Assembly (NCBI RefSeq): GCF_003086295.3
Contig: NC_092052.1
Coordinates: forward strand, 75,757,559 to 75,821,558
DNA length: 64,000 nt
Reading direction: 5' to 3'
Source: Arachis hypogaea
Lineage: Eukaryota; Streptophyta; Magnoliopsida; Fabales; Fabaceae
Below, piece after piece: positions 7,931 through 63,408 of the stretch. A model generated the notes under the pieces. The model searched no databases and had not been told where the DNA came from. It worked only from the letters and a program-made list of their open reading frames with translations. Made by a program: the position numbers and the translations under genes. Within the stretch, counting starts at the first letter, position 1, and every line of letters begins with the position of its first letter.

Positions 7931-10606
7931 TGATAAACCACTATTTTATGGTTTATTTTTTATTGAATTGAGTAGATTTTATCAACTATTCACACACTTA
8001 TCCATGTAAATTGCATGTTTTTAAGTTTCCTTCCTAATTTCATGCTATGATTGAAAACATGCTTCTTTGCCCTTAAAATTGCTAATTTTTAATCCTCTTT
8101 TATTACCATCGATGCCGTGATACGTGCGTTAAGTGATTTCAGGTTTTCTAGGGTAGGAATGACTTAGAGGATGGAAAGGAAGCATGCAAAAATATAAGGA
8201 ACACAAGAAATTGAAGTTTTGAGAAGCTGGCCTTGACGCGCACGTGTGGATGATGCGTACGCGTGACCGGTGCAGCAGGCAAGTGACGCGTACGCGTGGA
8301 TGACGCGTACGCGTGACCAGGGATTCGTTCAGCGACACGTACGCGTGGATGACGCGTACGCGTGACGAGCGTTACGTGCTTCAATTACGAGAAAATGCCG
8401 GTGGCAATTTTTGGGCTGCTTTTGACCCAGTTTCAGGCCCGAAAATATAGATTAGAGGCGGCAGAGTGAAGCTGGAAGAGGGATTGATTCACTTTTCATT
8501 CACACATTAGGTTTTAGATGTAGAATTCTAGAGAGAGAGGCTCTCTTACTTTAATTTAGTTTTCTTCTTAGGTTTAGGTTTCAATCTTATTTTAATTTAG
8601 TTTTCTCTTACTTTTATTTGTTTTAGCACTTTAGTTATCTACTTCCCTTATTGATTCTTTTATTTTGCTAATTTAGTTTATGAGTTAATGTGTTACTCTC
8701 AATTTTCATTAATTCAATTTATGTTTCATGTTTCTTATTGTTCAATTGCTTTGTTATTGTTATTTCTTTGCTTTGGTTAGTCTTCGAATTTCCTATGTCT
8801 TCTCAATTTTCTTTGTTTTTATTTTATGCCTTCCAAGTATTTGATAAAATACTTGGGTGAATTTTAATTTAGATTTTTATGTTCTTGACTTAGATTGATT
8901 AATTAGAGACTCTTGAGTTGTCAAAATTCTTTTTTTTGATTTGTGATTGAAAGTTGCTAGTTGGCTTGAGCATCACTAAATCTAGTCTTTGATTAGGACT
9001 TGTGAACTTAAGTCGATTTTGCTCGCTTGACTTTTCTTCATTTGTTAGAGGATAACTAAGTGAAAGCAATTTACATTTATCATCACAATTGACGATGATA
9101 ATGAGGATAGGACTTCTAATTCTCTTTCCTTGCTAAGAGCTTTCTTAGTTATTAGTTTATTTTCTTGCCATTTTACTTTCTTGTTTCTTATTACAAAACT
9201 CAAAAATATACTTTTTCATAGCCAATAATAAACATACTTCCCTGCAATTCCTTGAGAGTCGACCCGAGGTTTAAATACTTTGGTTGATTTTATTGGGTTT
9301 GCTTAAGTGACAAACAATCTAAATTTTGATTGAGGTTTAATTGTTGGTTTAGAACTATACTTGCAATGCGATATTTTTGTGAAAATCTTTACCGACATTT
9401 TTCTTCCGTCAAGTTTTTAGCCGAGGTGTATGCGTGATTAAGCCATTTTCCAATGACGCGTACGCGTGACTGATACGTACGCGTGACCTTGTGTAGAGCC
9501 ACCGACGCGTATGCGTGGCTGATGCATACACGTGACGAACGTCACGTGCTCCAATTAACAGAACTCGCTAGGGGCAATTTCTGGGCTGATTTGGACCCAG
9601 TTTCAAGCCCAAAAGTGCAAACTAAAGGCTGGGATAGAGCTGAGACTGAAGACACTTCATTTTTTGCTTTTAGTTTTTGATTAGTTTTGAATTCTAGTGA
9701 GAAAAACTCCTACTTCTCTCTAGGGTTTTGGCATTCTTATTTTTATTTCGAATTGGATCTTGGGAGAGCTGTTGCTACCTTCATTCCTCGTCATTTTATT
9801 TCTAGTTTTTTCTTTAATTACCTGAATACTCTTTTTCATTTGGTTATTGAATTCATGTTTGGATCTTGTTTCTCTTGAATTTTATTAATGCATATTTTTA
9901 TGTTTATTTTTATTGCTTGTTTGATCATTGTTAATTATTGTTAGTGCTAATTTCGATTTAATTAATTTCTGATAATTATCATGTCTTTTATTTACACCCA
10001 CCATGTATTTCTGAAAATGACATTCATGATAATGGAGTAAAATTTCCAACTTGGTTGGGGGTTGAGTAATTGAAACTCCTTGAGTTGTTATATCCAAGTA
10101 TTAATCTGTAATTGAAAATTGTTGTCTAGCTCAAATCTCACCAACTTTAGTCCTTCCCCATGAAGTGACTAGGACTTGTGAGCTAGAGTTAGTGACGCCC
10201 ACTTGACTTTCCTTCAATTGCTAGAGGATAACTAAGTGGGAGCAATGAACCTTTATCATTACACATGGGAAAGACAACAAGGATAGAAATTCCAATTCTC
10301 TCCCCTAACCAAGGCCTTTTATTTTGATTAATTATCAACTCTTACTAGTTATCCATTGCTTTAATTTCTAGCTATTTATTTTTCCGTTCTCAATTTTCAA
10401 AAATATTCAGGAAAATCCTTACCAATAATTTGCATCATGGGTCAACTCTTAGGGAAACGACCCAGGATTCTACTCCCGGTTATTTATTATTAATTTTGAC
10501 AGATTCAAAATTGATAGTGAAAATTTTGTCGGTTAAGGATGTACTTGCAACGCTGTTTTAGAAAATACTTTTCAGAAATTCTTAACCGGCATTTATCCGT
10601 CCATCA
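7931..10606 (+). mobile_element. LTR-LTR deletion derivative J (two joined LTRs)
   Basis: The insertion is bounded by CAAAC at 7926-7930 and 10607-10611. It consists of a full LTR (7931-9411, TGATAAACCACTATTT...CCGTCA), six to nine bases of leader (AGTTTTTAG), then a 5'-truncated related LTR (9421-10606, ending CCATCA). Both contain a GACGCGTACGCGTGAC palindrome array (8234-8365 and 9454-9545) and the block GGCAATTT(C/T)TGGGCTG. The whole coding interior and the start of the second LTR are gone, probably by recombination. The first LTR resembles the LTR of element E. Confidence 0.7.
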
Positions 10607-13235: not shown

Positions 13236-13371
13236 TGATGCATGAGCATCTTCCTTATCTTTTCTTAGTGAATTTGCATATGAAATTGTTGAATTATATC
13301 AAGATTTGGGTGTTTTAAGCCACCATGAATGCTACTTTGAGTTGTTGTGCAATTTGATTTATTATAGGTAG
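13236..13371 (+). repeat. Element B 5' LTR, first part
   Basis: It begins TGATGCATGAGCATC and matches the start of the element F LTR closely (TTAGTGAATTTGCA, GTTGTTGAATT, GCCACCATGAATGCTA). It is interrupted at 13372 by element C and resumes at 21293. The bases GGTAG at 13367-13371 are duplicated at 21288-21292. Confidence 0.85.
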
Positions 13372-15823
13372 TGATGCACATAAACTAGTTATGCTACGAT
13401 TTAGGAAATTGCACGATCGGCAAAATTCCTTCCGGCAAGTGCACCGGTTATCGTCAAGTAAAAACTCACAATAGAGTGAGGTCGAATCCCACAAGGATTG
13501 GTTGAGTGAGCAATTCGGATTAGAAGTGTGTTCTAGTTGAGCGAAATCAAGATTGAGATGAGAATTGCGGAATGTAAAATTGGCGGGAAAAGTAAATGAC
13601 AAGAAATTGAAATGGCGGAATCTTAAATTGCAATGAATTAAAGAGCAGAAACTAAATTGCTGAAATTAAAAGGGAATGGGGGTGTTGCATGAATTGAGTT
13701 GCAGAATGTAAAGAGAAAGTGGAAATCAGAAATGGGGAATTCATTGGGTTATAGGAGATATTGAGATCTCCGAATCAAAACATGTTTATCTCTTCCTCAA
13801 CCAATGCGTTCATTGAATTTTGCTTGGCAATCTTATATGATTGGATCCCAATCCCTTGGCTCACCAATTCTCTCTAAAAACAAACAAATTCCCAATCCCT
13901 TGGTTTAAATGTTCATAAGAAGAGATGATGCTTGATCACTGATTATACCACACAATTTCATGAACCACAATTTGGTAGGATTACATGTCACAATATCCAT
14001 CCAAACCCCAATCCAATTCACTGTGAGAAAGCTTCTCTAGCATGAATCCTCCATTCCTTTCCCAAGGCTCCGAAGGATTCCAAGTATGGGTAGTTTCTTT
14101 CCCAAGACAACTACTCAATGGAATTAGATCGAGAAGCTTTCTAACAAAATTCAAGAGAAAAGATTGAAGAAGAAGATAAACTATTATTGATTCATTGAAT
14201 TACAATAGAGCTCCCTAACCCAATGAAAGGGGGTTTAGTGAATCATAGCTCTGAATTCAATTACAAAGAAAAGGAAAACTAGCTAAAAGTGAAAGTAAAA
14301 GTCCCCATCAGGGGCTGGATTCCCCTTCAATCCCCCCCTCTCTAAATGCAGAAACTAAGGCCTTTAAATAGGCTCCCTAAATTACAAAATGAAAATGAAA
14401 TTCAAAGCAAATTACAATCAAATGAAAATAAACTATTCTAGATGATTCTTGTGGCCTTGATTTGGTGTTGTTGATGGGCCTTGCTTGCTTGAAGGGCTGA
14501 GTGACATAATTGATCCAAAAAGGATAATGATCCATTAAACTACACTCAAATGTTGCACCCCCTTTCTTGAGTCGTCACTTTGTTCTCTTGTCAACCTTGC
14601 CAATTTGATGCCAAATATAGACTATTATACCTCGTTGGAAAGCTATGGATGTCAGCTTTCTAACGCAACTGGAAGCACCTCAATTGGATCTCTACAACTC
14701 GAGTTATACTCCATGGAAGGTGAAGAGGTCAGCTGGCCTGATTGCATGTTGGTACTATGCTCTTCTATGCACATTACGGGGCTGTTTTCTCCCTCAATTT
14801 TTAGTATCCACCATGCATGCCATATATGCTTGGAAAGCTCTAGATGTCTTCTTTCCAATGCATTTTGAATCACCTCATTTGGAGTTTTGTAGCTCAAGTT
14901 ATTTATGTTTGAAGAAGGCATGGTCAAGCTGTTCCATATAACACGTTTAAGCTTCAGTTTAAGGTTAAACTGAAGCTTAAACGTGGATAAAGGAAGGGCA
15001 GCCCTGGAGGTCGAACACGTTTAACCTCCAGTTTGAGGTCAAAATGGAGGTTAAACGTGGAAGCTTAGAATGGTAGCCCTGGAGGTGTCGAACACGTTTA
15101 ACCTCCAGTTTGAGGTCAAACTGGAGGTTAAACGTGGAAATGGAGAGAGCAACCCTGGAGGAGAAAGGCTGTCGAACACGTTTAAGCTCCAGTTTGAGGT
15201 CAAACTGGAGCTTAAACGTGGAAATGGCTCCCTGGTGCTATTCCCACTTCTGGCGTTTAACCTCCAGTTTGAGGTCAAACTGGAGGTTAAACGTGGAACT
15301 CCTTCCTGAGTGGCATTGTCATTCTGGCGTTTAACCTCCAGTTTGAGGTCAAACTGGAGGTTAAACGTGGAATGCTTCTTTGGTGAGACTTTTCATTCTG
15401 GCGTTTAACCTCCAGTTTAAGGTTAAACTGGAGGTTAAACTTCCATTCCAGCATTCCTTAGCCTTCATGATTCTGGCGTTTAAGCTCCAGTTTAGGCTTA
15501 AACTGGAACTTAAACTCCACATGTGATATTCAAGCTTCCTTTATTGATTTTGTTGCTTCCTTGCTTAGCCTCTTCTTCCCTGAAATCATCCAAACAAATG
15601 CATCAAAGTCTTGCAACATTTCATGAGAAATCTTCCATTCATAGCATTCAAGTAATATAACTAAAACTCATGGAAATTGCATCAAAATCATATTGTTTGG
15701 ATGGTTCATTGCTTTGTTCTTCATTTAACCATTTTTGGTTACTTTAAGCTCAAGAAAATGCATAAAACAACTAAAACTAACAGAAAAATGCTAGTGAAAC
15801 TAGCCTAAGATGCCTTGGCATCA
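13372..15823 (-). repeat. Element C 3' LTR
   Basis: On the minus strand it begins TGATGCCAAGGCATC (at 15823) and ends GTTTATGTGCATCA (13372). Next to it inside the element is the AAGTTTGGTGTTG motif (complement of 15824-15836). Its palindrome array is listed separately. Confidence 0.92.
14942..15515. repeat. Array of eight near-perfect palindromes in element C 3' LTR
   Basis: There are eight units about 75 bp apart. Each has the form CGTTTAACCTCCAGTTTGA, GG, then the exact reverse complement, giving stems of about 19-21 bp with a 2-base loop. Units differ by paired changes: AACC/GGTT in most but AAGC/GCTT in units 1, 4 and partly 8; CTCC/GGAG but CTTC/GAAG in unit 1; TTTGA/TCAAA but TTTAA/TTAAA in units 1 and 7. 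Only isolated mismatches occur (unit 2, and the last unit). Confidence 0.95.
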
Positions 15824-17401
15824 CAACACCAAACTTAATACTTGCTTGTCCCTAAGCAAGTTCTGAATTATTGAGAAGAAAGAATGAAACAGAAAGTAAA
15901 TTCATTAGCCATATCAGTAAGTAATTGACATTGATTAATGGCGTGTTCATGTAGAAAGTTGTTGCAGCATCACTTTATTGTTTCTTAGGTAAGAATGTCA
16001 CTTTTTATGTTTCCACTAAAACACTGCTATGGCCTCTTGTTATTCACATATCCTTGGCAAGTTTCTTTTCTTTGTGTTTTCTTTTTCTTTGAGCTTATTT
16101 GCTCCTTGTTGCTCAGTGTCATGTGTTGCACAAGCCTTTGGCATTTTCTTTTTCTTATCAGTGCACTACACATATCCACTACAGGCATTTTAGTTCACAT
16201 TTCTTCTTGAGACATTGGTACCCAGCACCTCTTTGTGTACTAAATGTTTTGTATTTAGGTTGCTCTTGATAATGGACTTTTGGTTGATAATCCCGGGTTA
16301 GTTAACCCAAGTTACCAAGTGTTGAAACACTCCTCAGAACCTATTCATCCAAGCATATCCTTAATACATAAACACCACAGGCATTTGTCTCAGAAGTTCA
16401 AACCATTGGTGCCTAGCTTATTTTCTCAATTTTTTTTGCTTTTTGGTTGCCCTTTTTCAGTGGCTTTTTCTTCTTCTTTTTCTTTCTTTTTCATGGCCAA
16501 TGATATTTATTCATCAAGATCCATAGACAGCATCCTAATTTCCACTAAAAGTGACAATTCTAACTTTATTTCTTAGTGAGCTGACTATTCAATCAAACAT
16601 GCATACCACCACTTAATCTTATTTGATTTCTTACTAAATGGAATTGAGTTACTTTTGTTCAAACATCTCTTTTATTTTATGGAAACAGAACAAGCATGGC
16701 AAGCATACATTTAAGCAAGTGAAGTTTATCCAGACACTTAGACTATCACTTATTTGGAAATTAAACAAACAGACAAACAAAAACTGCAATGACTCAAACT
16801 TAAAGCAGGGGTGCATGCAAACTTCAAATATCAGCAATTCAAAGTACAAGTAATTAAGTGACAATACAACCTTTTAGCATCTTCTTTGTTGTTCATCATC
16901 CTTCCTAGCCTTGGTGTTCTCTTTGATGATGATGTATATTCCTTCCATGAGATTGATTGTCTTCCTGCAAAGTTATTAGAAGTTTCTTGTTCCCCAAGCA
17001 CTTTGAGAATTGGTTAGCATGCATGGATGTTTGTAGGCCTCTGAACTTAGATTGGTGTGTGAACACGAAACTTAGTTCCTTGCCATATGCAGCAATTGGG
17101 ATCATATGCAGAAAACCTCATGTGCTTTTATTAAGAAAATAACTATGAACTAGAAAAAGAAACTATGAACTAGAAATTAAACTATTGTTTAAGTAGTTTC
17201 CCTGATTGGTTGGAGCTAGTGACTAGTCATGCTGAGGTAGAAATGTGCTTTTAATGAAGTTTTTTGGTGGAACACCAAACTTAGAATCTCACATTCACCC
17301 TTGAATTGTTTTGGTGTGCAACACCAAACTTAGCTCCTTGCAATACAGATAAATCTACTTAACTCTTTTATTGAAATAACTAGAAAAGAAAAACTACCTT
17401 T
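15824..17401 (-). other. Element C 3' internal region, non-coding
   Basis: This lies between the ORF and the 3' LTR. It has no recognisable protein. It holds three copies of AAGTTTGGTGTT on the minus strand (15826-15836, 17272-17282, 17321-17331) and a GCTTAGGGACAAGC hairpin near 15845. Confidence 0.6.
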
Positions 17402-17450
17402 GGTTGGGTTGCCTCCCAACAAGCGCTTCTTTAACGTCATTAGCTTGACA
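17402..17450 (-). promoter_or_regulatory. Conserved post-coding hairpin block, element C
   Basis: On the minus strand it reads GTCA-AGCTAA-TGAC, AAGCGCTT, then GTTGGG-AGGCAA-CCCAAC. The same three-part block follows the last gag/pol codon in elements D, F and G, with a variant in E. The first arm overlaps the end of the ORF. An RNA structural role is inferred from paired changes among copies. Confidence 0.7.
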
Positions 17451-18630
17451 TGCTGTTCCTGACTTTCTTCCTCTTCTTCCAGTTTGTTAAGAGGAATGAC
17501 TTCAAGTGGATAAAGGAGCTAGTTAGTGCCCCTTGTTGTGAATGCTTCTTTCCAGCAAGCTTTCCCTTGTGATTGGCTTGAGTGAACTTGCTTGTTGGCT
17601 CAGGAGTTGGATTGTTCTTCGACCTTCTCTTCTTCATGGATATGATCCTTTGTTTCTCGGTCACAATCCTCATTTTGGTGCTTGTTTCTACTGCCTTCAC
17701 ATCCTTGATCTCAGAACTTGGTTGTTGTTGGACAGTTGGAGTATCCTGTTCATCAAAAGCTTCCTGAATTTGTGGTTCAATGAACCCTTCCTCTTTGCAA
17801 CTCTCTGTGTCATTGGAGTGTGATCTCCCTTGATTGACTTTCTCCCTTTCTTGTTCTTCTGATTCCTCCCTTGGGTTTGCCATGGTATCACTAGAAGAAT
17901 TGTGGGTAGGGATTTGCTTTGATAGATATCCAATTTGTGCTTCTAGCTTTTGAATGGCAGCACCATGATTTTGTAAGTTGGATATCACTTCTTCCTTAAA
18001 GCTTTTCAAATCGGCCACATCTCTGCCCATAGTTGCAATCATTCCTTCTATCCTGTTTAATTGATCTTGAAATTGTTGGTTCGGATTGGGTTGATGAGGT
18101 TGATTATCTTGGCTGTGATATGGTGGCTGGGAGTATGTGTTTTGTGTGGGCTGATAGAGTCTTTGGTTGGAGTGTTGGTAGTGGTATGACTCTTGTGTGT
18201 AGTGGAATGAGTCTTGTGGATAGTGAAATGAATTGTATGAATTTGAGAAGGAATTTTGTGCTGAGAAATGCTCAAGTGATGAAGAATTTGGATATGTAAA
18301 ACTAGGAGGTGAGGTTGGATAATTCAGAGGTGATGGCTCTTGATGAATGGGGTGTGAATAAGTGAAATCTCTTTGGTTTTGATCTTCCCAGCCACAACTT
18401 GAGTAGTGATCAAATTCACCAAAACATGGACCATTTTGTGGCTCTGGGAAGTATCCCGTTTCCTGTTCCTGATACTCCCACCCACCATGAGCATAATAAC
18501 ATGAATCATTCTGTGGTGGTGGAGAGTTTCTCATGAATTTTGATTGACCAAAAGATGATGGATACTCCTTTCTTTTTTGCAATGTGCTCAGTCTCAAACA
18601 ATACTCATCCAAAGATAGTGGAAATTCCAT
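17440..18630 (-). CDS. Element C protein: Tyr/Gln/Ser-rich, coiled-coil, gag-tail-like
   Basis: An intact 396-codon frame, starting 182 bp after the primer site. Residues 40-185 are a low-complexity, prion-like stretch rich in Y, Q, S, H, P and N. Residues about 185-240 form heptads typical of a coiled coil and include LEAQIGYLSKQI, followed by ANPREES. Those blocks match the post-capsid part of gag in G (LEAQVGQLSK) and F (PNPREEC). The C-terminus is basic (KKRRSKNN, KKRKK). There is no capsid domain, zinc knuckle or protease. I infer a shortened gag derivative, possibly an assembly or RNA-binding partner of another element's gag. Function is not established. Confidence 0.7.
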   Translation of the reverse strand: MEFPLSLDEYCLRLSTLQKRKEYPSSFGQSKFMRNSPPPQNDSCYYAHGGWEYQEQETGYFPEPQNGPCFGEFDHYSSCGWEDQNQRDFTYSHPIHQEPSPLNYPTSPPSFTYPNSSSLEHFSAQNSFSNSYNSFHYPQDSFHYTQESYHYQHSNQRLYQPTQNTYSQPPYHSQDNQPHQPNPNQQFQDQLNRIEGMIATMGRDVADLKSFKEEVISNLQNHGAAIQKLEAQIGYLSKQIPTHNSSSDTMANPREESEEQEREKVNQGRSHSNDTESCKEEGFIEPQIQEAFDEQDTPTVQQQPSSEIKDVKAVETSTKMRIVTEKQRIISMKKRRSKNNPTPEPTSKFTQANHKGKLAGKKHSQQGALTSSFIHLKSFLLTNWKKRKKVRNSMSS

Positions 18631-18811
18631 AGTGAGGCAATATTACAAACAGCTAGTGGTTAGTATGCTAACAAGTGAATAAGCAAAGAAAACAAATTAA
18701 AATTTGCAGAAATTAGCAGTAATAAACTGAAACAAAAACTATTAACAAAAGAAAAGAAAAATTGCTCAATCTAGTTAACTTCCAATTGGAGAATTGTCAA
18801 TCGAAAACCAA

Positions 18812-18829
18812 TCCCCGGCAACGGCGCCA
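18812..18829 (-). promoter_or_regulatory. Element C primer-binding site (tRNA-Asp)
   Basis: The minus strand is TGGCGCCGTTGCCGGGGA, a perfect complement to the 3' end of plant tRNA-Asp including CCA. It is six bases inside the 5' LTR boundary at 18836. Confidence 0.92.
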
Positions 18830-18835
18830 TAAACT

Positions 18836-21287
18836 TGATGCACATAAACTAGTTATGCTACGATTTAGGAAATTGCACGATCGGCAAAATTCCTTCCGGC
18901 AAGTGCACCGGTTATCGTCAAGTAAAAACTCACAATAGAGTGAGGTCGAATCCCACAAGGATTGGTTGAGTGAGCAATTCGGATTAGAAGTGTGTTCTAG
19001 TTGAGCGAAATCAAGATTGAGATGAGAATTGCGGAATGTAAAATTGGCGGGAAAAGTAAATGACAAGAAATTGAAATGGCGGAATCTTAAATTGCAATGA
19101 ATTAAAGAGCAGAAACTAAATTGCTGAAATTAAAAGGGAATGGGGGTGTTGCATGAATTGAGTTGCAGAATGTAAAGAGAAAGTGGAAATCAGAAATGGG
19201 GAATTCATTGGGTTATAGGAGATATTGAGATCTCCGAATCAAAACATGTTTATCTCTTCCTCAACCAATGCGTTCATTGAATTTTGCTTGGCAATCTTAT
19301 ATGATTGGATCCCAATCCCTTGGCTCACCAATTCTCTCTAAAAACAAACAAATTCCCAATCCCTTGGTTTAAATGTTCATAAGAAGAGATGATGCTTGAT
19401 CACTGATTATACCACACAATTTCATGAACCACAATTTGGTAGGATTACATGTCACAATATCCATCCAAACCCCAATCCAATTCACTGTGAGAAAGCTTCT
19501 CTAGCATGAATCCTCCATTCCTTTCCCAAGGCTCCGAAGGATTCCAAGTATGGGTAGTTTCTTTCCCAAGACAACTACTCAATGGAATTAGATCGAGAAG
19601 CTTTCTAACAAAATTCAAGAGAAAAGATTGAAGAAGAAGATAAACTATTATTGATTCATTGAATTACAATAGAGCTCCCTAACCCAATGAAAGGGGGTTT
19701 AGTGAATCATAGCTCTGAATTCAATTACAAAGAAAAGGAAAACTAGCTAAAAGTGAAAGTAAAAGTCCCCATCAGGGGCTGGATTCCCCTTCAATCCCCC
19801 CCTCTCTAAATGCAGAAACTAAGGCCTTTAAATAGGCTCCCTAAATTACAAAATGAAAATGAAATTCAAAGCAAATTACAATCAAATGAAAATAAACTAT
19901 TCTAGATGATTCTTGTGGCCTTGATTTGGTGTTGTTGATGGGCCTTGCTTGCTTGAAGGGCTGAGTGACATAATTGATCCAAAAAGGATAATGATCCATT
20001 AAACTACACTCAAATGTTGCACCCCCTTTCTTGAGTCGTCACTTTGTTCTCTTGTCAACCTTGCCAATTTGATGCCAAATATAGACTATTATACTTCGTT
20101 GGAAAGCTATGGATGTCAGCTTTCTAACGCAACTGGAAGCACCTCAATTGGATCTCTACAACTCGAGTTATACTCCATGGAAGGTGAAGAGGTCAGCTGG
20201 CCTGATTGCATGTTGGTACTATGCTCTTCTATGCACATTACGGGGCTGTTTTCTCCCTCAATTTTTAGTATCCACCATGCATGCCATATATGCTTGGAAA
20301 GCTCTAGATGTCTTCTTTCCAATGCATTTTGAATCACCTCATTTGGAGTTTTGTAGCTCAAGTTATTTATGTTTGAAGAAGGCATGGTCAAGCTGTTCCA
20401 TATAACACGTTTAAGCTTCAGTTTAAGGTTAAACTGAAGCTTAAACGTGGATAAAGGAAGGGCAGCCCTGGAGGTCGAACACGTTTAACCTCCAGTTTGA
20501 GGTCAAAATGGAGGTTAAACGTGGAAGCTTAGAATGGTAGCCCTGGAGGTGTCGAACACGTTTAACCTCCAGTTTGAGGTCAAACTGGAGGTTAAACGTG
20601 GAAATGGAGAGAGCAACCCTGGAGGAGAAAGGCTGTCGAACACGTTTAAGCTCCAGTTTGAGGTCAAACTGGAGCTTAAACGTGGAAATGGCTCCCTGGT
20701 GCTATTCCCACTTCTGGCGTTTAACCTCCAGTTTGAGGTCAAACTGGAGGTTAAACGTGGAACTCCTTCCTGAGTGGCATTGTCATTCTGGCGTTTAACC
20801 TCCAGTTTGAGGTCAAACTGGAGGTTAAACGTGGAATGCTTCTTTGGTGAGACTTTTCATTCTGGCGTTTAACCTCCAGTTTAAGGTTAAACTGGAGGTT
20901 AAACTTCCATTCCAGCATTCCTTAGCCTTCATGATTCTGGCGTTTAAGCTCCAGTTTAGGCTTAAACTGGAACTTAAACTCCACATGTGATATTCAAGCT
21001 TCCTTTATTGATTTTGTTGCTTCCTTGCTTAGCCTCTTCTTCCCTGAAATCATCCAAACAAATGCATCAAAGTCTTGCAACATTTCATGAGAAATCTTCC
21101 ATTCATAGCATTCAAGTAATATAACTAAAACTCATGGAAATTGCATCAAAATCATATTGTTTGGATGGTTCATTGCTTTGTTCTTCATTTAACCATTTTT
21201 GGTTACTTTAAGCTCAAGAAAATGCATAAAACAACTAAAACTAACAGAAAAATGCTAGTGAAACTAGCCTAAGATGCCTTGGCATCA
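18836..21287 (-). repeat. Element C 5' LTR
   Basis: Same length and, apart from one base seen, the same sequence as 13372-15823. A TATTTAAAGG box lies on the minus strand at 19834-19825. The CTCAC-AATAGA-GTGAG (18929-18944) and CCGG..CCGG (18896-18911) hairpins sit close to the primer site. Confidence 0.92.
20406..20979. repeat. Array of eight near-perfect palindromes in element C 5' LTR
   Basis: This is the second copy of the array at 14942-15515, unit for unit, 5464 bp further on. Both copies are intact, including the covarying units. Confidence 0.95.
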
Positions 21288-21292
21288 GGTAG

Positions 21293-26173: not shown

Positions 26174-27670
26174 TGATAAACCACTATTTTATGGTTTATA
26201 ATGTGTTTAATTGTGTGGTTTTATCATGATCTTTACCCACTTATTCATATAATTAGCATGCATTTATATTTCCTTCCTAAAATTATTACATGATTGAAAA
26301 CTTACTTCCTAGAGACTTTTAATTATGTATTTTAATTCTCCTTTATTCCATTCGATGCCGTGATCTGTGTGTTAAGTGTTTCAGGCTTTATAGGGCATGA
26401 ATGAGTTGGAGATTGGAAAGGAAGCTTGCAAAAATGGAAGGAACACAAGAAATTGAGGAGATGACCAGCAAGAAGTGACGCGGCCACATGGCTCACGCGA
26501 CCGCGCGAAAGAGAGGAAATCGCAGTGACGCGACCGCATGGCTCACACGACAGCGCGGATTGGAATAGCACAAGTGACGCGGAGGCGTGGACAACGCGCT
26601 CGTGTGGCAGGGCAAAACGCCGAATGATGCGGCCGCATGAATGACGCGATCGCGTGATGTGCGTGATCTGCATAATCTGCAGAATTCGCTGGGGGCAATT
26701 TTGGGCCCTTCTTTGACCCAATTCTCGGCCCAGAAAAGCAGACTAGAGCCAGAGAACATGCAGGAACCAACAACAACATTCATTCTACACAATTTTAGTT
26801 TTTTCAGATCTAGTTTTACTCCTCTTCTAGGTTTTCTCTCTACACATTCATAGTTCTTAGGATTTTATTTCTATTGCTTTTTGCATTGGGATATTGAGAA
26901 GAGTTATTACCTCATCAAGACTTCGTCATTCTAGTTCGTTTTCTTTACTTGGCTCTACTCTTCCATGTCCTTTAATTTACTCAATTTTACTATTGGATTA
27001 TTTTAGAATTTATTAATACAAGGATTACTTTTATTTTTAATTGATTTCTTTGATTTTTATTTATTATGTCTTTCTTTAATTCCCTTTCCTATGTTATGAA
27101 TTTTGCAGTCACAATGAGTGAGTAGTTCCCTAACTTGATGGGGAGTTGATTGAAAGGAACCCTTGAGTTGGAATGCTCAAAAGAAAAAATTATAATTGGG
27201 TTTATTGTTGGATTGCCCTCTAGTCACTGACACCAATCCCTTTCAATTGAGTGGGTTGGAACTTGTGAATAGAAGTAGCATTCCAACTTGTTTGACTTTC
27301 CCTTACCTAGTAAGGGATAACTAAACAAGACAACCTACAATTATCAATTAATCTTGAGAGTATTTTAACAAGAATAGGGCTTCCAACTAATCTACTCCCA
27401 GTCAAGGCTTTTATTTAATTTATTTAATTTCTCTAATTTAATTTCCTGTTTATTCAACTCAAACATTTTTTTTGAAAACATCTGATTAATAAAATAGCAC
27501 ACCTTTCTGCAACTCGTTGGGAGACAACTTGGGATTCATACTCCCAGTATTTTAATTTTAATTTTTTTGACACCCTTCTAAATTGATAAGCGGATTTCTG
27601 GTTGGTTAAGAACTATACTTGCAACGCATATCTTATAACAATTCTTGACTCGCCCATTTCCGCAACGTCA
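26174..27670 (+). repeat. Element E 5' LTR
   Basis: 1497 bp. It carries an ACGCG(A/G)CCGC-type palindrome array at 26478-26665, then GGGGGCAATTTTGGGC. It is 49 bp longer than the 3' LTR because of an extra array segment near 26508-26556. Confidence 0.9.
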
Positions 27671-31307: not shown

Positions 31308-31635
31308 TGGTGCGGTATTTTACAACCACACTTACTAACCGGCAAGTGTACCGGGTCGTACCAAGTAATACCTTACGTGAGTAAGGGTCGATCCCACGAG
31401 GATTGATGGACTAAGCAACAATAGTGTTTGATAGACTTAGTTAGACAAACAAAAATTGCTGTTGAGATGCAGTATAAAAAACATTAAACAATATCAAAAA
31501 TATTGAAGAAGGGCAAGTAATTAAGTAGGGAATAAAATATGGAGAAGATAGTTAAGGTTTCAGAGTTATCTATTTTTCCGGATTAATTTTTCTTATTAAC
31601 TATTTTAATCATGTAGGATTTAATTTATGGCAAAC
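31308..31635 (-). repeat. Element F 3' LTR, first part (U5 side)
   Basis: It starts TGGTGCGGTATTTTAC on the plus strand, as does the other LTR at 49153. It contains CCGG..CCGG and CCTTAC-GTGA-GTAAGG hairpins within the first 75 bases. It is interrupted by G after CAAAC and continues at 42612. Confidence 0.9.
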
Positions 31636-33308
31636 TGATGAGCGGATAATTTATACGCTTTTTGGCATTGTTTTTAGTATGTTTTTAGTAGGATCTAGTT
31701 ACTTTTAGGGATGTTTTCATTAGTTTTTATGTTAAATTCACATTTCTGGACTTTACTATGAGTTTGTGTGTTTTTCTGTGATTTCAGGTATTTTCTGGCT
31801 GAAATTGAGGGACTTGAGCAGAAATCAGATTCAGAGGTTGAAAAAGGACTGCTGATGCTGTTGGATTCTGACCTCCCTGCACTCAAAGTGGATTTTCTGG
31901 AGCTACAGAACTCGAAATAGCGCGCTTCCAATTGCGTTGGAAAGTAAACATCCAGGGCTTTCCAGCAATATATAATAGTCCATACTTTGGCCAAGAATAG
32001 ACGACGTAAACTGGCGTTCAACGCCAGCCTTCTGCCCAAATCTGGCGTCCAGCGCCAGAAAAGGATCCAAAACCAGAGTTGAACGCCCAAACTGGCACAG
32101 AAACTGGCGTTCAACTCCACAAATGGCCTCTGCACGTGCAACACTCAGGCTCAGCCCAAACGCATACCAAGTGGGCCCAGGAAGTGGATTTATGCATCAA
32201 TTACTTACTCATGTAAACCCTAGTAGCTAGTTTATTATAAATAGGACCTTTTACTAGTCTTTTAGACAATCTTTGGTCTCAGTTTTATTCCATTGTTCAT
32301 CTTAGGAGACTATTGATCTCGTTTAGGGGGCTGGCCATCTCGGCCATGCCTAGCCCTTCACTTATGTATTTTTAACGGTAGAGTTTCTACACTCCATAGA
32401 TTAAGGTGTGGAGCTCTGCTGTTCCTCAAAGATTAATGCAAGTACTACTATTTTCTATTCAATTCATCTTATTTCTCTTCTAAGATATCCATTCGCACCC
32501 AAGAACGTGATGAAGGTGATGATTATGTGTGACGCTCATCATCCTTCCCCCTTATGAACGCGTGCCTGACAAACACTTCTGTTCTACATGAATTAAGCTA
32601 GAATGAGTATCTCTTAGATCTCCTAACCAGAATCTTCGTGGCGTAAGCTAGAATGATGGCGGCATTCAAGAGAATCCGGAAAGTCTAAACCTTGTCTGTG
32701 GTATTTCGAGTAGGATTCAATGATTGAATGACTGTGACGAGCTTCAAACTCGCGATTGTTGGGCGTTAGTGACAGACGCAAAAGGAGGGTGAATCCTATT
32801 CCAGCATGATCGAGAACCGACAGATGAATAGCCGTGCCGTGACAGGGTGCGTGAGCATATTATTCACTGAGAGGAGGGGATGTAGCCACTGACAACGGTG
32901 ATGCCCTTGCATAAAGCCAGCCATGGAAAGGAGTAAGACTGATTGGATGAAGATAGCAGGAAAGCAGAGGTTCAGAGGAACGAAAGTATCTCCATTCGCT
33001 TATCTGAAATTCCTACCAATGATTTACATAAGTACCTCTATCCCTATCTTATTAATTATTATTCGAAAACACCATTATCCATTTATATCTGCCTGACTGA
33101 GATTTACAAGGTGACCATAGCTTACTTCATACCAACAATCTCCGTGGGATTCGACCCTTACTCACGTAAGGTATTACTTGGACTACCCAGTGCACTTGCT
33201 GGTTAGTTGTATCGAAGTTGTGACAATTATGTATTAAGATCAAAGCACCAAGCTTTGGAGCCATTACCAGGGATTGTTCGAGCCTGGACATCACAATTTC
33301 GTGCACCA
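31636..33308 (+). repeat. Element G 5' LTR
   Basis: It starts TGATGAGCGGATAATT and ends TTCGTGCACCA. TATAAATA box at 32236-32243. A GGCGTTCAACGCCAG-type palindrome cluster is at 32008-32120. Near the end are CCTTAC-TCAC-GTAAGG (33156-33171) and CCAG-TGCACTTG-CTGG (33187-33202). The last 60 bases include a decayed primer-site copy (33254-33272) preceded by its own AGCACCA LTR end. Confidence 0.93.
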
Positions 33309-33314
33309 AGGTTT

Positions 33315-33332
33315 TGGCGCCGTTGCCGGGGA
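33315..33332 (+). promoter_or_regulatory. Element G primer-binding site (tRNA-Asp)
   Basis: TGGCGCCGTTGCCGGGGA lies six bases after the LTR end. It is a perfect match to the tRNA-Asp 3' end complement. Confidence 0.92.
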
Positions 33333-33413
33333 TTGTTTGAGTTCTCGGCAAGCTTTTGGTCCGGTAACATCAGTGCCATATTCCCTTTTGATCCGGCAAC
33401 AGCACCAAGTTTT

Positions 33414-33431
33414 TGGCGCCGTTGCCGGGGA
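33414..33431 (+). promoter_or_regulatory. Second, duplicated primer site in element G leader
   Basis: A second perfect TGGCGCCGTTGCCGGGGA lies 99 bases after the first, again preceded by GCACCAAGTTTT and followed by TTGTTTGAGT. The intervening segment also has shortened GGTCCGGTAACA and ATCCGGCAACA versions. It is likely a tandem duplication of the LTR-end/primer region. Confidence 0.85.
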
Positions 33432-35332
33432 TTGTTTGAGTTTGGACAACTGACGGTTCATCTTGTTGCTCAGATTAGGTAATTTTCTTTTTGTTTTCTT
33501 TTCAAAAAATTTTTCAAAAATATTTCAAAATATTCTCATCTGTTTTCGAAAAAAAAAATGTTTTCAAAAATTTATTCAAAATTTTTAAGAATGAATTCTA
33601 GTGTTTCATGAAGCATGTGAAGCCTGGCTGGCTGTAAAGCCATGTCTAAATTCATTTGGACTGAGGCTTGCAATTTGTTATCAAAGAGCAACTTAGTTGT
33701 TGCTCATCCACCTGCTGCTGATCCATGATCACCTGCTGAAGCTTGGCTGGCCATTGGGCATGTCTAGTGTTTTGGACCGGAGCTTTCTTTGAAAGCTTGG
33801 CTGGCTAGTGAGCCATGTCTAATTCCTGGACTGAAGCTTTAGACTAACATGGCAAGATTCCTGGAATTCATATTAAAAATTTTTGGAATCCTTATTTTTC
33901 CTTTTAATATGCGAAAAATATAAAATAAAAATCCAAAAAAATTAGAAAATCATAAAAATCAAAAATATTTTGTGTTTCTTATTTGAGTCTTGAGTCATAT
34001 CATAAGTTTGGTGTCACTTGCATAAGCATCTTGCATTTTTTTCGAAAATATCATGCATCCATAGTGTTCTTCATGATCTTCAAGTTGTTCTTGGTAAGTC
34101 TTCTTGTTTGATCTTGATGATTTTTTGTTTTGTGTCTTTTCATGTTTATCATATGCATTCTTGAATTCTTAGTGCGTAAGCATTAAAGAATTCTAAGTTT
34201 GGTGTCTTGCATGATTTCTTTGCATTAAAAATTTTTCAAAATTGTGTCTATGATGTTCATCTTGACATTCATAGTGTTCTTGGTGTTCATCTTGACATTC
34301 ATAGCATTCTTGCATGCATTCATTGTTTTGATCTAAAAATTTCATGCATTGCATAATTTTCATGTTTTTCATAAAAATTTCAAAAATCAAAAAAATATCT
34401 TTCCCTTTTTCTCTCATCAAATTCGAAAATTTGGATTGACTTTTTCAAAAATTTTTAAAATCAAGTTGTTTCTTATGAGTCAAATCAAATTTTCAATTTG
34501 AAAATCTTATCTTTTTCAAAATCTTTTTCAAAAATCAAATCTTTTTCAAAATTCTTAGTTCTTTTCGAAAATTCAAAAAATATTTTTCAAAAATCTTTTT
34601 CTTAATTTTTTCACAAATTTTCGAAAATAACATAAACAATTAATGTTTTGATTTAAAAATTTGAAGTTTGTTACTTGCTTGTTAAGAAAGATTCAAACTT
34701 TAAGTTCTAGAATCATATCTTGTGATTTCTCATGAATCAAGTCATTAATTGTGATTTTAAAAATAAAATCTTTTTCAAAACTAATTTCAATCATATCTTT
34801 TCAAAAATATCTTCTTATCTTATCTTTTTCAAAAATATCTTTTCAAAATATCTTTTCTAACTTCCTAACTTCCTATCTTTTCAAAGTTTGTTTCAACTAA
34901 CTAACTAACTTTTTGTTTGTTTCTTAACTTTTTCAAAACCACCTAACTAATTCTCCCTTTCTAATTTTCGAAAATATCTCCCCCTTTTTCAAAAATTTCT
35001 TTTTAATTAACTAATTATTTTTATTTTTATTTTTGATTTCAAAAATTTTTGAAAAAAAAAATACTAACAATTTTCAGAAACCATTTTCAAAAATCACTAA
35101 CTCTTTTTCAAAATAATTTTCGAAAATTATCCCTCCCCCATCTCATTCTATTTATTCATTCATATCCTAACATCTCAACTCACCTCTCTTCCATCCTCAC
35201 AGTTGTGTTTCTTCCATTATATTACATTCTTTGTCTCCCCCTCTTCTTCCACTTACATAGGGGAACCTCTATACTGTGGTAAAGAGAATCTCTATTATTA
35301 TTATTATTTTTCTGTGCCCTCTTCTTTATCAT
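33432..35332 (+). other. Element G long AT-rich leader
   Basis: About 1.9 kb without a protein. It holds three copies of a GCTTGGCTGGC...GCCATGTCTA motif (33605-33850), two CATCTTGACATTCATAG repeats (34258-34308), AAGTTTGGTGT at 34004 and 34195, and long TTTTTCAAAAAT runs. The same TTTCAAAAAT-rich leader style occurs in D. Confidence 0.6.
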
Positions 35333-37525
35333 ATGAGCAGGAGCAAGGATAAGAACATTCTTGTGGAAGCAGATCCAGAACCTGAAAGGACTCTGAAGAG
35401 AAAATTAAGAGAAGCTAAAATACAACAATCCAGAGATAACCTTTCAGAAATTTTTGAACAGACAGAGGAGATGGCAGCCGAAAATAATAATAATATAAGG
35501 AAGATGCTTGGTGACTTCACTGCACCTAATTCCAATTTACATGGAAGAAGCATCTCCATTCCTGCCATTGGAGCAAACAACTTTGAGCTGAAACCTCAAT
35601 TAGTTTCTCTAATGCAGCAGAACTGCAAGTTTCATGGACTTCCATCTGAAGATCCTTTTCAGTTCTGAACTGAATTCTTGCAGATATGTGATACTGTTAA
35701 GACTAATGGAGTAGATCCTGAAGTCTACAGGCTCATGCTTTTCCCTTTTGCTGTAAGAGACAGAGCTAGATTATGGTTGGATTCTCAACCCAAAGACAGC
35801 CTGAACTCTTGGGATAAGCTGGTCACGGCTTTCTTAGCCAAGTACTTTCCTCCTCAAAAGCTGAGCAAGCTTAGAGCTGATGTTCAAACTTTCAGACAGA
35901 AAGAAGGTGAATCTCTCTATGAAGCTTGGGAAAGATACAAACAGTTGACCAAAAAGTGTCCTTCTGACATGCTTTCAGAATGGACCATCCTGGATATATT
36001 CTATGATGGTTTATCTGAGCTATCAAAGATGTCACTGGACACTTCTGCAGGTGGATCCATTCACCTAAAGAAAATTCCTGCAGAAGCTCAAGAACTCATT
36101 GACATGGTTGCTAATAACCAGTTCATGTACACTTCTGAAAGGAATCCTGTGAGCAATGGGACGCCTATGAAGAAGGGAGTTCTTGAAGTTGATACTCTGA
36201 ATGCCATATTGGCTCAGAACAAAATATTGACTCAGCAAGTCAATATGATTTCTCAGAGTCTGCATGGAATGCAAGCTGCATCCAACAGTACTCAAGAGGC
36301 ATCTTCTGAAGAAGAAGCCTATGATCCTGAGAACCCTGCAATAGCAGAGGTGAATTACTTAGGTGAACCTTATGGAAACACCTATAACTCAACATGGAGA
36401 AATCATCCAAATTTCTCATGGAAGGATCAAAAGCCCCAACAAGGCTTTAATAATGGTGGAAGAAACAGGTTTAGCAATAGCAAGCCTTTTCCATCATCAA
36501 CTCAGCAACAGACAGAGAACTCTGAACAAAATGCTTCTAATTTAGCAAATCTAGTCTCTGATCTATCTAAGGCCACTGTAAGTTTCATGAATGAAACAAG
36601 GTCTTCCATTAGAAATCTGGAAGCACAAGTGGGCCAGCTGAGTAAAAGGATCATTGAAATCCCTCCTAGTACTCTCCCAAGCAATACAGAAGAGAACCCA
36701 AAAGGAGAGTGCAAGGCCATTGACATAAGCGCCATGGCCGAACCTGTGAGGAGAGGAGAGGACGTGAATCCCAAGGAGGAAGACCTCCTGGGACGTCCAG
36801 TGGTCAATAAGGAGCTTCCCTCTGAGGAACCAAAGGAATCTGAGACTCATCTAGAGACCATAGAGATTCCATTGAACCTCCTTATGCCCTTCATGAGCTC
36901 TGATGAGTATTCCTCTTCTGAAGAGAATGAGGTTGTTACTGAAGAGCAAACTGCCAAGTTTCTTGGTGCAATCATGAAGCTGAATGCCAAATTGTTTGGC
37001 ATTGATACTTGGGAAGTTGAACCTCCCTTGTTCATCAATGAACTAAGTGATCTGGATCAACTGACATTGCCTCAGAAGAGACAGGATCCTGGAAAGTTCA
37101 TAATCCCTTGTACCATAGGCACCATGATCTTTAAGGCTCTGTGTGACCTTGGTTCAGGGATAAACCTCATGCCCCTCTCTGTAATAGAGAAACTAGGAAT
37201 CTATGGGGTGCAAGCTACTAAAATCTCATTAGAGATGGCAGACAGCTCAAGAAAACAGGCTTATGGACAAGTAGAGGACGTTTTAGTAAAGGTTGAGGGC
37301 CTTTACATCCCTGCTGATTTCATAGTCCTGGATACTGGAAAGGAAGAGGATGAATCCATCATCCTAGGAAGACCTTTCCTGGCCACAGCAAGAGCTGTGA
37401 TTGATGTTGACAGAGGTGAAATATTCCTTCAATGGAATGAGAACTCCCTTGTATTTAAAACTCAAGGATCTCCCTCTGCAACCATGGAGAGGAAGCTTGA
37501 AAAGCTTCTCTCAAAGCAGAGTTAA
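35333..37525 (+). pseudogene. Element G gag-protease (one in-frame stop)
   Basis: It starts MSRSKDKNILVEADPEPERT. One TGA at 35666-35668 (codon 112) interrupts an otherwise continuous 730-codon frame. Capsid blocks (LMLFPFAVRDRARLWLDSQP, ESLYEAWERYKQL) lie within 35730-35945. A coiled region with LEAQVGQLSK follows near 36620. The protease active site is CDLGSG (Asp at 37145) with ILGRPFL near 37361. No zinc knuckle was seen. The frame ends soon after the protease, so no pol is encoded. The stop would give a truncated product unless read through. Confidence 0.9.
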
Positions 37526-37541
37526 CCAGAGCCCCCACAGT

Positions 37542-37632
37542 CAAACTCTAAGTTTGGTGTTGGGAGGCCACAACCAAACTCTAAGTTTGGTGTTGAACTC
37601 CCATATCCAAACTCTAAGTTTGGTGTTGGAGA
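37542..37632 (+). repeat. Triple CCAAACT-CTA-AGTTTGG hairpin with GTGTTG
   Basis: Three units, each CAAACT-CTA-AGTTTGGTGTTG, start at about 37542, 37575 and 37608. Each is a 6-7 bp inverted repeat. They sit right after the gag-protease stop and multiply the AAGTTTGGTGT motif that also borders the 3' LTR. Confidence 0.85.
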
Positions 37633-37680
37633 GTCTCAACAAAGCTCTGCACATCTGTGAGGCTCCATGAGAGCCCACTG

Positions 37681-37725
37681 TCAAGCTATTGACATTAAAG
37701 AAGCGCTTGTTGGGAGGCAACCCAA
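37681..37725 (+). promoter_or_regulatory. Conserved post-coding hairpin block, element G
   Basis: GTCAA-GCTA-TTGAC (from 37680), AAGCGCTT (37701-37708), then TTGGG-AGGCAA-CCCAA (37710-37725). It occupies the pol/envelope-position boundary, as in the other elements. Confidence 0.75.
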
Positions 37726-37860
37726 TGTTTATCTAATTCTTATTTTTATTATTTTTCATGTTTTCTTAGGTTCATGATCATGTGGAGTCACAAAATAAAT
37801 ATAAAAATTGAAAACGGAATCAAAAACAGCAGAAGAAAAATCACACCCTGGAGGAGCATC

Positions 37861-38034
37861 TGTCTGGCGTTCAGCGCCAGAACAGAGCATGGTTCTGGCG
37901 CTGAACGCCCAAAATGAGCAGCTTCTGGGCGCTGAACGCCAGAACAGGCATGGTTCTGGCGTTCAACGCCAGAAATGGCACACAGATGGGCGTTGAACGC
38001 CCAAAATGGCCACCAACCTGGCGCTGAACGCCCA
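37861..38034 (+). repeat. GGCGTTGAACGCC-type palindrome array, element G 3' region
   Basis: At least six imperfect palindromes such as CTGGCGTTCAGCGCCAG, TGGGCGTTGAACGCCCA and CTGGCGTTCAACGCCAG occur within 175 bp. Some variants keep pairing (GGCG/CGCC against GGGCG/CGCCC). A related cluster is in both LTRs of the same element. Confidence 0.85.
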
Positions 38035-38100
38035 GAGTTGGATACAAAGGCATTTTTACATGCCTAATGGGTGCAGGGATGTAAATCCTTGAACACCTCA

Positions 38101-38211
38101 GGATCTGTGGACCCCATAGGATCTACTCAGGATTTGTGGACCCCACAGGATCCACTCAGGATCTGTGGACCCCACAGGATCCACTCAGGATCTGTGGACC
38201 CCACAGGATCC
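38101..38211 (+). repeat. Four 29 bp tandem repeats, GGATCTGTGG-ACC-CCACAGGATCC
   Basis: Units start at 38101, 38130, 38159 and 38188. Each is itself a hairpin of GGATCTGTGG with CCACAGGATCC. A single copy exists at the matching place in element D (about 63467-63490), so the array is an amplification in G. Confidence 0.85.
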
Positions 38212-38650
38212 CCACCTACCTCCACTCACTTCTTCTCACCACTCTCTTTCACACAACCCCATAAACACTCTTCCCTAAAAACCCCTCACCAATCACCTCA
38301 TTCTCTCTTCCCCACTAAACCTTCACCACTCACAATCCATCTCCTCTTCCCCATAAACCTACCTCATAAACTCCACCTACCTTCAAAATTCAAAACCAAT
38401 TTCCCACCCAAACCCACCCATATGGCCGAACCAATACCCCCCCTCCCTTCCCTATATAAAGACCTCCATTCTTCCTCAAATTCACACAACACACCCCTCT
38501 ACACTCCTCTTGGCCGAAACCACATCTCCCTCTCCCTCTCCATATTTCTTCTTCTTCTTCTACTATTCTTTTGTTTATTGCTCGAGGGCGAGCAATATTC
38601 TAAGTTTGGTGTGGTAAAAGCATAGCTTTTTTGTTTTTCCATTACCATTG

Positions 38651-42606: not shown

Positions 42607-42611
42607 CAAAC

Positions 42612-49128: not shown

Positions 49129-49146
49129 TTCCCGACAACGGCGCCA
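49129..49146 (-). promoter_or_regulatory. Element F primer-binding site (tRNA-Asp, two changes)
   Basis: Minus strand TGGCGCCGTTGTCGGGAA, six bases inside the 5' LTR. Two mismatches to the tRNA-Asp complement. Confidence 0.85.
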
Positions 49147-63261: not shown

Positions 63262-63408
63262 GCTGGCATTTAACGCCAGAAAAAAGCAACAAGCTAGCGT
63301 TTAACGCCAGAACAGAGCACCAAGTTGGTGTTAAACGCCCGAAAGGGAAGAAAAGTTGGCGTTAAACGACAGAAACAGGCTACAGCCTGGCGTTTAACGC
63401 CAGAATTG
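63262..63408 (+). repeat. GGCGTTTAACGCC-type palindrome array, element D 3' region
   Basis: Five imperfect palindromes with CTGGC(G/A)TTTAACGCCAG or TGGCGTTAAACG(C/A)C cores. The position equals the 37861-38034 array of G. One GGATCTGTG..CCACAGGATCC unit follows at about 63467. Confidence 0.85.

What the first reader, a model, noticed from the sequence alone, without database searches (positions are those of the whole stretch)
14942..20979. Eight long near-perfect palindromes in each LTR of a very young element
Element C carries 16 palindromes (8 per LTR), each of about 19-21 bp stem with a GG centre, spaced about 75 bp. Unit-to-unit differences are mirrored in both arms at three separate positions (AACC/GGTT to AAGC/GCTT, CTCC/GGAG to CTTC/GAAG, TTTGA/TCAAA to TTTAA/TTAAA). 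Long palindromes are normally unstable, yet these are intact in an element whose LTRs are almost identical. They could form RNA hairpins feeding small-RNA pathways, cruciforms, or protein-binding arrays. Mirrored change could come from selection or from gene conversion between arms.
Basis: seen in the sequence. Interest (0 to 1): 0.87.

Follow-up and report, generated by a model that had tools for sequence, protein, structure and literature searches.

The report
Palindrome array in peanut retrotransposon LTRs
A young jumping element in what looks like the peanut genome carries eight long mirror-image sequences in each end repeat, and thousands of related copies show that when one half of a mirror changes the other half nearly always matches it, which points to a maintained control region of a kind so far described in a different group of plant retrotransposons.

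Summary
Each 2452-bp LTR (13372-15823, 18836-21287; one difference between them) has eight palindromes, six perfect and two with one mismatch. The element lies on the minus strand, has a 5-bp TSD and a PBS, and belongs to a Ty3/gypsy-type family whose longer members encode Gag. All 85 further LTR copies fetched by an array-external flank keep 3-9 units. At an inner G/C position the two arms agree in 16,527 of 16,560 exact cores of the genome; at a C/T position in 12,149 of 12,330. Within 10 arrays examined, palindromes are 88-97% identical and spacers 35-63%. Differences between the LTRs of 26 pairs hit single arms at about the background rate (20 single, 0 mirrored), and rare unit types show no mirrored change (0 of 58). 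Symmetry is therefore set in the replicating lineage, not repaired after insertion. Best reading: a cis-regulatory palindrome array in the upper LTR, the gypsy counterpart of the Sirevirus 'RM boxes', with symmetry kept by selection on mobile copies. Rare template switching is the main rival. Small-RNA and promoter roles were not testable. New variant of a known kind.

The parts
13372..21287 (-). non-autonomous Ty3/gypsy-type LTR retrotransposon ('element C')
   Evidence: LTR pair at offset 5464, TG..CA ends, TSD, PBS; relatives encode gag in the same sense
18836..21287 (-). 5' LTR in element sense, 2452 bp, TGATGC...GCATCA
13372..15823 (-). 3' LTR in element sense, 2452 bp
13367..13371 (.). 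target-site duplication GGTAG, left copy
21288..21292 (.). target-site duplication GGTAG, right copy
18812..18829 (-). primer-binding site TGGCGCCGTTGCCGGGGA, 6 nt from the 5' LTR
   Evidence: tRNA-Asp assignment recalled
17440..18630 (-). 396-aa ORF, the longest ORF of the internal region; no Pfam family above its cut-off
20406..20979 (-). palindrome array of the 5' LTR, LTR nt 309-882 in sense, 8 units
14942..15515 (-). palindrome array of the 3' LTR, 8 units
14942..14985 (.). unit 1, 21-bp arms, perfect (second copy 20406-20449)
15016..15059 (.). unit 2, 21-bp arms, one mismatch (second copy 20480-20523); this mismatch is absent from unit 2 of close relatives such as L001
15093..15136 (.). 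unit 3, 21-bp arms, perfect (second copy 20557-20600)
15177..15220 (.). unit 4, 21-bp arms, perfect (second copy 20641-20684)
15254..15293 (.). unit 5, 19-bp arms, perfect (second copy 20718-20757)
15328..15367 (.). unit 6, 19-bp arms, perfect (second copy 20792-20831)
15403..15440 (.). unit 7, 18-bp arms, perfect (second copy 20867-20904)
15478..15515 (.). unit 8, 17-bp arms, one mismatch, 4-nt centre (second copy 20942-20979)

Best explanation
The array is a cis-acting control region in the upper half of the LTR (probably U3) of a Ty3/gypsy-type family. It is built of repeated palindromic boxes and works like the repeated-motif (RM) boxes of Sireviruses. Shown: the boxes are conserved while their spacers are not; symmetry is kept through sequence change in lineages that went on transposing; after insertion the arms decay one at a time at about the background rate. 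Inferred: element copies whose boxes stay symmetric are the ones that are transcribed or copied well, so arm changes are compensated over successive transpositions. Not resolved: whether a dimeric host factor on duplex DNA or a hairpin/cruciform reads the symmetry. Because variable inner positions also covary, pairing or joint reading of both arms fits better than two independent half-sites.
For: All 85 non-window LTR copies found by an array-external flank keep 3-9 units. Palindromes are 88-97% identical within an array against 35-63% for spacers, in the 10 of 87 arrays examined. Whole-genome exact cores: G/G 6928, C/C 9599, mixed 33, where independent arms would give about 8065 mixed; C/C 6928, T/T 5221, mixed 181, where about 6047 would be expected. 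29 amplified 46-nt types: 94.7% of cells paired against 88.7% in shuffles, 46 cells changed on both sides against 17.7, covariation 0.211 against 0.111, each with 0 of 500 shuffles as high; 8 of 22 pairs changed on both sides against 4.9, 6 of 500 as high. Amplified types have fewer mismatches (13 of 522 pairs) than rarer types (93 of 1566), Fisher p 0.0012. Differences between paired LTRs: 20 single, 0 mirrored; arm rate 0.41% against 0.49% elsewhere. Other LTR elements of the window carry palindromes in a similar part of the LTR, as do Sirevirus RMs (PMC2829016 section 9).
Against: 11 of 21 amplified unit types carry one or more mismatches, one of them in 24 loci, so selection for pairing is weak or not absolute. 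The number of further pair types, 14, is no higher than the shuffles' 13.5. Mismatches in amplified types are not biased to G-U in the sense strand (8 wobble on plus, 4 on the sense strand, 1 neither), so no RNA-specific signature. Unit turnover and recombination reduce the number of independent events. In element A of the window the box array starts just downstream of a TATA-like block (31969) whose counterpart in this LTR (near nt 1195) lies downstream of the array, so a fixed place upstream of the promoter is not shown. The short palindrome CTGGCGTTNAACGCCAG has 88,351 T/T but only 40 mirrored C/C copies, so mirrored evolution is not shown for that family. No transcript, methylation or binding data. 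CpG o/e of this array is only 0.58 at 45% GC.
Confidence: 0.58

Rival explanations
1. Mutational drive without function: template switching between the arms of a hairpin, during reverse transcription or DNA replication, copies one arm onto the other and keeps quasi-palindromes perfect.
For: The mechanism is described: it homogenises inverted-repeat arms and inverts spacers (PMC8604942, passages) and can make and maintain hairpins (PMC8794818, abstract and outline). Centres GG and CC, reverse complements of each other, both occur on the same arms. At the G/C position only 33 of 16,560 cores are mixed.
Against: 0 mirrored changes in 58 rare unit types and 0 beside 20 single-arm differences of paired LTRs, so it is not frequent; the rare-type test cannot see a mirrored change that lands on an already common type. 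Arm copying within a unit does not explain why arms of different units stay 88-97% alike while spacers do not. Mismatched types persist through many insertions. GG to CC can also go through the common GC centre by single substitutions.
Confidence: 0.22
2. RNA hairpins from read-through or antisense transcripts feed small-RNA pathways, and the array is kept as a self-limiting or host-exploited signal.
For: Very strong predicted fold on RNA (z -21). In maize Sireviruses an excess of small RNAs maps to palindrome clusters (reported in PMC10760457, passages and section 21; the original Bousios 2016 paper is not held).
Against: No small-RNA data were available. No G-U bias on the sense strand among tolerated mismatches. 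A silencing trigger should be lost from successful lineages, yet all 85 flank-selected copies keep units. No Rfam family reached its gathering score.
Confidence: 0.1
3. Founder and unit-shuffling effect: a few symmetric units arose once each and were spread by recombination between units, so covariation counts copies and not events.
For: Arrays are mosaics with 3-9 units in different orders. The LTR pairs L010 and L048 differ by 72 and 77 alignment columns, about one unit. In L046 one arm carries two linked changes of another unit type.
Against: Eight distinct symmetric arms exist among amplified types, so at least seven mirrored steps are needed however they spread (my count); shuffling alone makes hybrids with unlike arms.
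Confidence: 0.1

Closest known systems
Sirevirus LTR repeated-motif (RM) boxes (Bousios et al. 2010, PMC2829016; passages, section 9)
   Same: High-copy palindromic boxes. [quoted passage not shown] here nt 309-882. Within-element identity commonly above 85%. In the same window another LTR element has boxes both in the LTR and in the linker upstream of a downstream ORF, the two places used by Sireviruses.
   Different: Ty3/gypsy type, not Ty1/copia. Arms of 17-21 bp here against about 5-9 in the printed Sirevirus boxes. No CGG-CCG core. Not a CpG island. 3-9 units per LTR in this family. Mirrored evolution is measured here.
[quoted passage not shown] 2016; known to me through PMC10760457)
   Same: Palindromes in the LTR cis-region, strong hairpins, proposed trade-off between function and small-RNA production
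   Different: PMC10760457 states that maize Ty3 elements generally lack an obvious peak of such structures; here it is a Ty3/gypsy-type family
Template-switch homogenisation of inverted repeats (PMC8604942 passages, PMC8794818 abstract)
   Same: Mirrored changes and centre inversion are its expected products
   Different: No one-step mirrored change was seen in rare unit types or between paired LTRs here
U3 tandem enhancer boxes of Tnt1/Tto1 (recalled; papers only listed)
   Same: Repeated, partly dyad-symmetric boxes in U3 (recalled)
   Different: Copia elements, short boxes, few copies (recalled); no sequence comparison made

Membership tests
Sirevirus RM boxes | carried by a Ty1/copia Sirevirus | tested here: not met
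   relatives encode Retrotrans_gag/Ty3_capsid (L021, L037, L056)
Sirevirus RM boxes | palindromic dyad symmetry, high copy, within-element identity commonly above 85% | tested here: met
   8 units per LTR, mean pairwise identity 0.90 in the window array; other copies have 3-9 units, some below the eight of every Sirevirus listed
Sirevirus RM boxes | start 200-400 bp into the LTR and extend 300-500 bp | tested here: met
   LTR nt 309-882, 574 bp long, slightly over the quoted extent
Sirevirus RM boxes | CGG-CCG core | tested here: not met
   amplified arms are variants of GTTTAAGCTCCAGTTTAA
Sirevirus RM boxes | cluster coincides with a CpG island | tested here: not met
   CpG o/e 0.58, GC 0.45; five other palindrome arrays of the window measured 0.82-1.86
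Sirevirus RM boxes | lies upstream of the TATA box | tested here: inconclusive
   TATA at nt 884 next to the array end, in a stretch of 0.99 identity, but eight other TATA sites in the LTR and no known start site; in element A the array lies downstream of a TATA-like block
Ty3/gypsy, OTA superclade (Athila/Tat) | Ty3-type gag and protease in relatives | tested here: met
   PF03732 and PF19259 above cut-off in L021, L037, L056; PF13650 protease above cut-off in L021 only, just below in L037, none in L056
Ty3/gypsy, OTA superclade (Athila/Tat) | RT/RH/INT phylogeny places it in Athila or Tat | not tested
   no pol domain among the six ORFs scanned; Athila-like PBS is recalled, so the clade is left open
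MITE or other DNA transposon nested in the LTR | unit flanked by its own target-site duplications and found outside the LTR | not tested
   units recur with unlike spacers inside the array; which elements hold the genome-wide cores was not traced

The most novel reading that the evidence does not exclude
In this genome several LTR families keep palindrome arrays of quite different sequence (long 38-44-mers, ACGCGNNCGCGT, CTGGCGTTNAACGCCAG with 88,351 exact copies) in a similar part of the LTR, and one of them also in the linker. Symmetry itself, not one sequence, would then be the selected trait: a DNA- or RNA-structure code shared with Sireviruses across the two superfamilies, either convergent or exchanged.
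Probability: 0.3. Interest if true: 0.8.

Novelty: new variant of a known kind. Interest (0 to 1): 0.6.

Why it matters
More than 16,500 exact palindrome cores in one genome, with paired LTRs as an internal clock, make a natural experiment that separates selection on structure from arm-to-arm copying. It extends LTR palindrome arrays from copia Sireviruses to a gypsy-type family, and it offers a measurable case of the conflict between a control region that must form or present symmetry and a host that can turn hairpins into small RNAs.

Tried and rejected
Arm-to-arm gene conversion after insertion: no support. RNA-specific G-U tolerance: no bias. Known RNA family: none at gathering score. Pfam on the window ORF gave only a sub-threshold match to a bacterial haemolysin model (17.1 against 29.1 bits); the related ORF of L017 passes that cut-off narrowly (30.1 against 29.1); I take both as coiled-coil artefacts. 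Generality of mirrored evolution in the short palindrome: 88,351 T/T against 40 C/C; the mixed count did not complete, and mixed units are seen in the window, so it is not claimed. Literature: the listings showed no title or abstract start on this array in Arachis; passages of PMC10578108 were not about it; the 2026 peanut assembly paper PMC13175896 has no occurrence of 'palindrom' in its held main text. That covers open-licence PMC only.

Limits of sampling: 60 regions (85 arrays, all with an exact flank) came from the first 100 listed of 1031 flank places, on contigs C2-C5; not all 100 were fetched. The genome holds far more cores than these flanks account for, so the sample describes one subfamily. 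Of 449 units, three in L012 lie beyond the LTR end. The 28 close relatives (two of them the window itself) are 100% to the 90-nt probe. 'Pairs' are neighbouring same-strand LTRs; L017 and L018 show the same difference and may be one event; four pairs differ in called unit number. Units with a centre other than 2 nt were dropped. 12 complete LTRs came from 26 candidate loci. The tree order used 80 of 87 arrays. The Fisher test treats types as independent, which they are not.
Full report
What is there. At 13372-21287 lies an LTR retrotransposon on the minus strand: LTRs 13372-15823 and 18836-21287, 2452 bp each with one difference, ends TGATGC/GCATCA, TSD GGTAG on both sides, PBS TGGCGCCGTTGCCGGGGA at 18812-18829. 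One difference in 2452 gives 16-31 thousand years with recalled substitution rates. The longest internal ORF has 396 aa and no Pfam family above its cut-off. Longer members of the family encode Gag (L021, L037, L056) and, above cut-off in L021 only, an aspartic protease, in the same sense, which fixes the orientation. This copy is non-autonomous.

The palindromes. Each LTR has eight units in 574 bp, LTR nt 309-882 in sense. Arms are 17-21 bp; six of eight are perfect. In 100 Markov resamples of the LTR the longest arm was 13 bp against 22 observed. RNA and DNA folds are 21-22 standard deviations below shuffles.

Other copies. A 25-nt pattern just outside the array occurs at 1031 places with up to 3 mismatches, reversed control 0. 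I fetched 60 regions from the first 100 listed places, giving 85 arrays plus the two of the window. None lacked the array: 3 to 9 units per array, 449 units of which three lie beyond an LTR end, 74 distinct. Of 28 close relatives on C11-C17 (two are the window itself) 27 show 6-8 units and one, L083, shows four.

Constraint. Within an array the palindromes are 88-97% identical to each other while spacers are 35-63% after alignment (10 of 87 arrays). Arms are invariant at TTTAA and AGTTT among amplified types; changes fall at a few positions between and beside them.

Mirrored change. At the inner G/C position the genome holds 6928 G/G, 9599 C/C and 33 mixed cores. At the C/T position on the G background it holds 6928 C/C, 5221 T/T and 181 mixed. 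Independent arms would give about 8065 and 6047 mixed. These count copies, not events, and they exceed what the flank-defined subfamily can hold; where the other cores lie was not traced. On 29 unit types present in at least three loci, 8 of 22 pairs have changes on both sides (shuffles 4.9; 6 of 500 as high), 46 cells against 17.7 and covariation 0.211 against 0.111 (0 of 500 as high); slid pairings give at most 0.050. The count of further pair types does not differ from shuffles, 14 against 13.5. Three of the eight pairs are in the outer flank (CAC...GTG against TGG...CCA).

When the symmetry is made. In 26 LTR pairs, differences fell on single arms 20 times and on both partners never; L017 and L018 share one of them. 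The arm rate (0.41% of 4908 bp) is like the rest (0.49% of 12,940 bp). Of 58 unit types seen in one or two loci, 52 differ from the nearest amplified type by one change and 6 by two, none mirrored. Amplified types comprise 10 symmetric and 11 asymmetric ones; the symmetric ones have eight distinct arms, so at least seven mirrored steps (my count). Amplified types also have fewer mismatches than rarer ones (13 of 522 against 93 of 1566 pairs). So insertions decay freely, and symmetry is restored or retained only along lineages that keep transposing.

Mechanism. Selection on mobile copies for a symmetric box explains conserved boxes, diverged spacers, compensated changes and free decay after insertion. 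A plain dimer site would not need its degenerate positions to match, so joint reading or pairing of the arms is the better reading; the tools cannot say which. Template switching, known to homogenise inverted repeats and invert their spacers (PMC8604942 passages; PMC8794818 abstract), remains possible as a rare source of mirrored steps, especially for the G/C flip, where mixed cores are only 33. Against selection as the whole story: 11 amplified types carry mismatches, and they show no preference for G-U in the sense strand.

Comparison. Sireviruses, copia elements, carry palindromic RM boxes most of which start 200-400 bp into the LTR and run for 300-500 bp, with extra copies in the linker upstream of the env gene (PMC2829016 section 9). 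Here the LTR position matches. Another element of the window (31636-42606) has CTGGCGTTCAACGCCAG-type boxes in its LTR (32011-32120) and again at 37866-38030, between a gag ORF with a below-cut-off protease match (35669-37522) and an ORF with PF20167 (38618-39796). Further LTRs in the window have ACGCGNNCGCGT-type boxes roughly 200-500 nt from the LTR start; their superfamily was not tested by Pfam. Superfamily, CGG-CCG core and CpG island fail, so this is not a Sirevirus RM, but it works like one. PMC10760457 (passages and section 21) reports that maize Ty3 elements generally lack an obvious peak of such structures.

Verdict. Real, strongly non-random, and an extension of a known kind to another superfamily, with an unusually clean data set for asking how symmetry is kept.

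Noticed in passing
window 37866-38030 and 63262-63405; genome-wide: The 17-nt palindrome CTGGCGTTNAACGCCAG occurs 88,351 times exactly in the genome, reversed control 0; in the window it or close variants form arrays in an LTR (32011-32120) and between gag and a downstream ORF (37866-38030).
   Followed up: partly
window 8235-8366, 26477-26668, 57090-57230, 43330-43480: Arrays of ACGCGNNCGCGT-like palindromes in other LTRs, roughly 200-500 nt from the LTR start; CpG o/e 1.57-1.86 in the three that were measured (57090-57230 was not).
   Followed up: partly
L010, L048, L062: Paired LTRs differ in the array: 72 and 77 alignment columns (about one unit) in L010 and L048, 29 columns in L062.
   Followed up: no
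L046, third unit: Left and right arms match different unit types at two linked positions, a conversion-like tract that hit one arm only.
   Followed up: no
G000:C2:44822554, 44830070, 44837572; C11:102650183, 102656319, 102662455: Three matches at equal or nearly equal spacing, as in LTR-internal-LTR-internal-LTR tandems.
   Followed up: no
L037 2071-3867 and window 38618-39796: ORFs with PF20167 ('putative plant transposon protein') lie downstream of a gag ORF in two LTR elements, in the position of an env-like gene.
   Followed up: no
window 31308-31636, 42607-43685, 49153-50553: Element 31636-42606 seems to be nested inside the LTR of a minus-strand element whose other LTR is 49153-50553, with a PBS-like site at 49129.
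   Followed up: no
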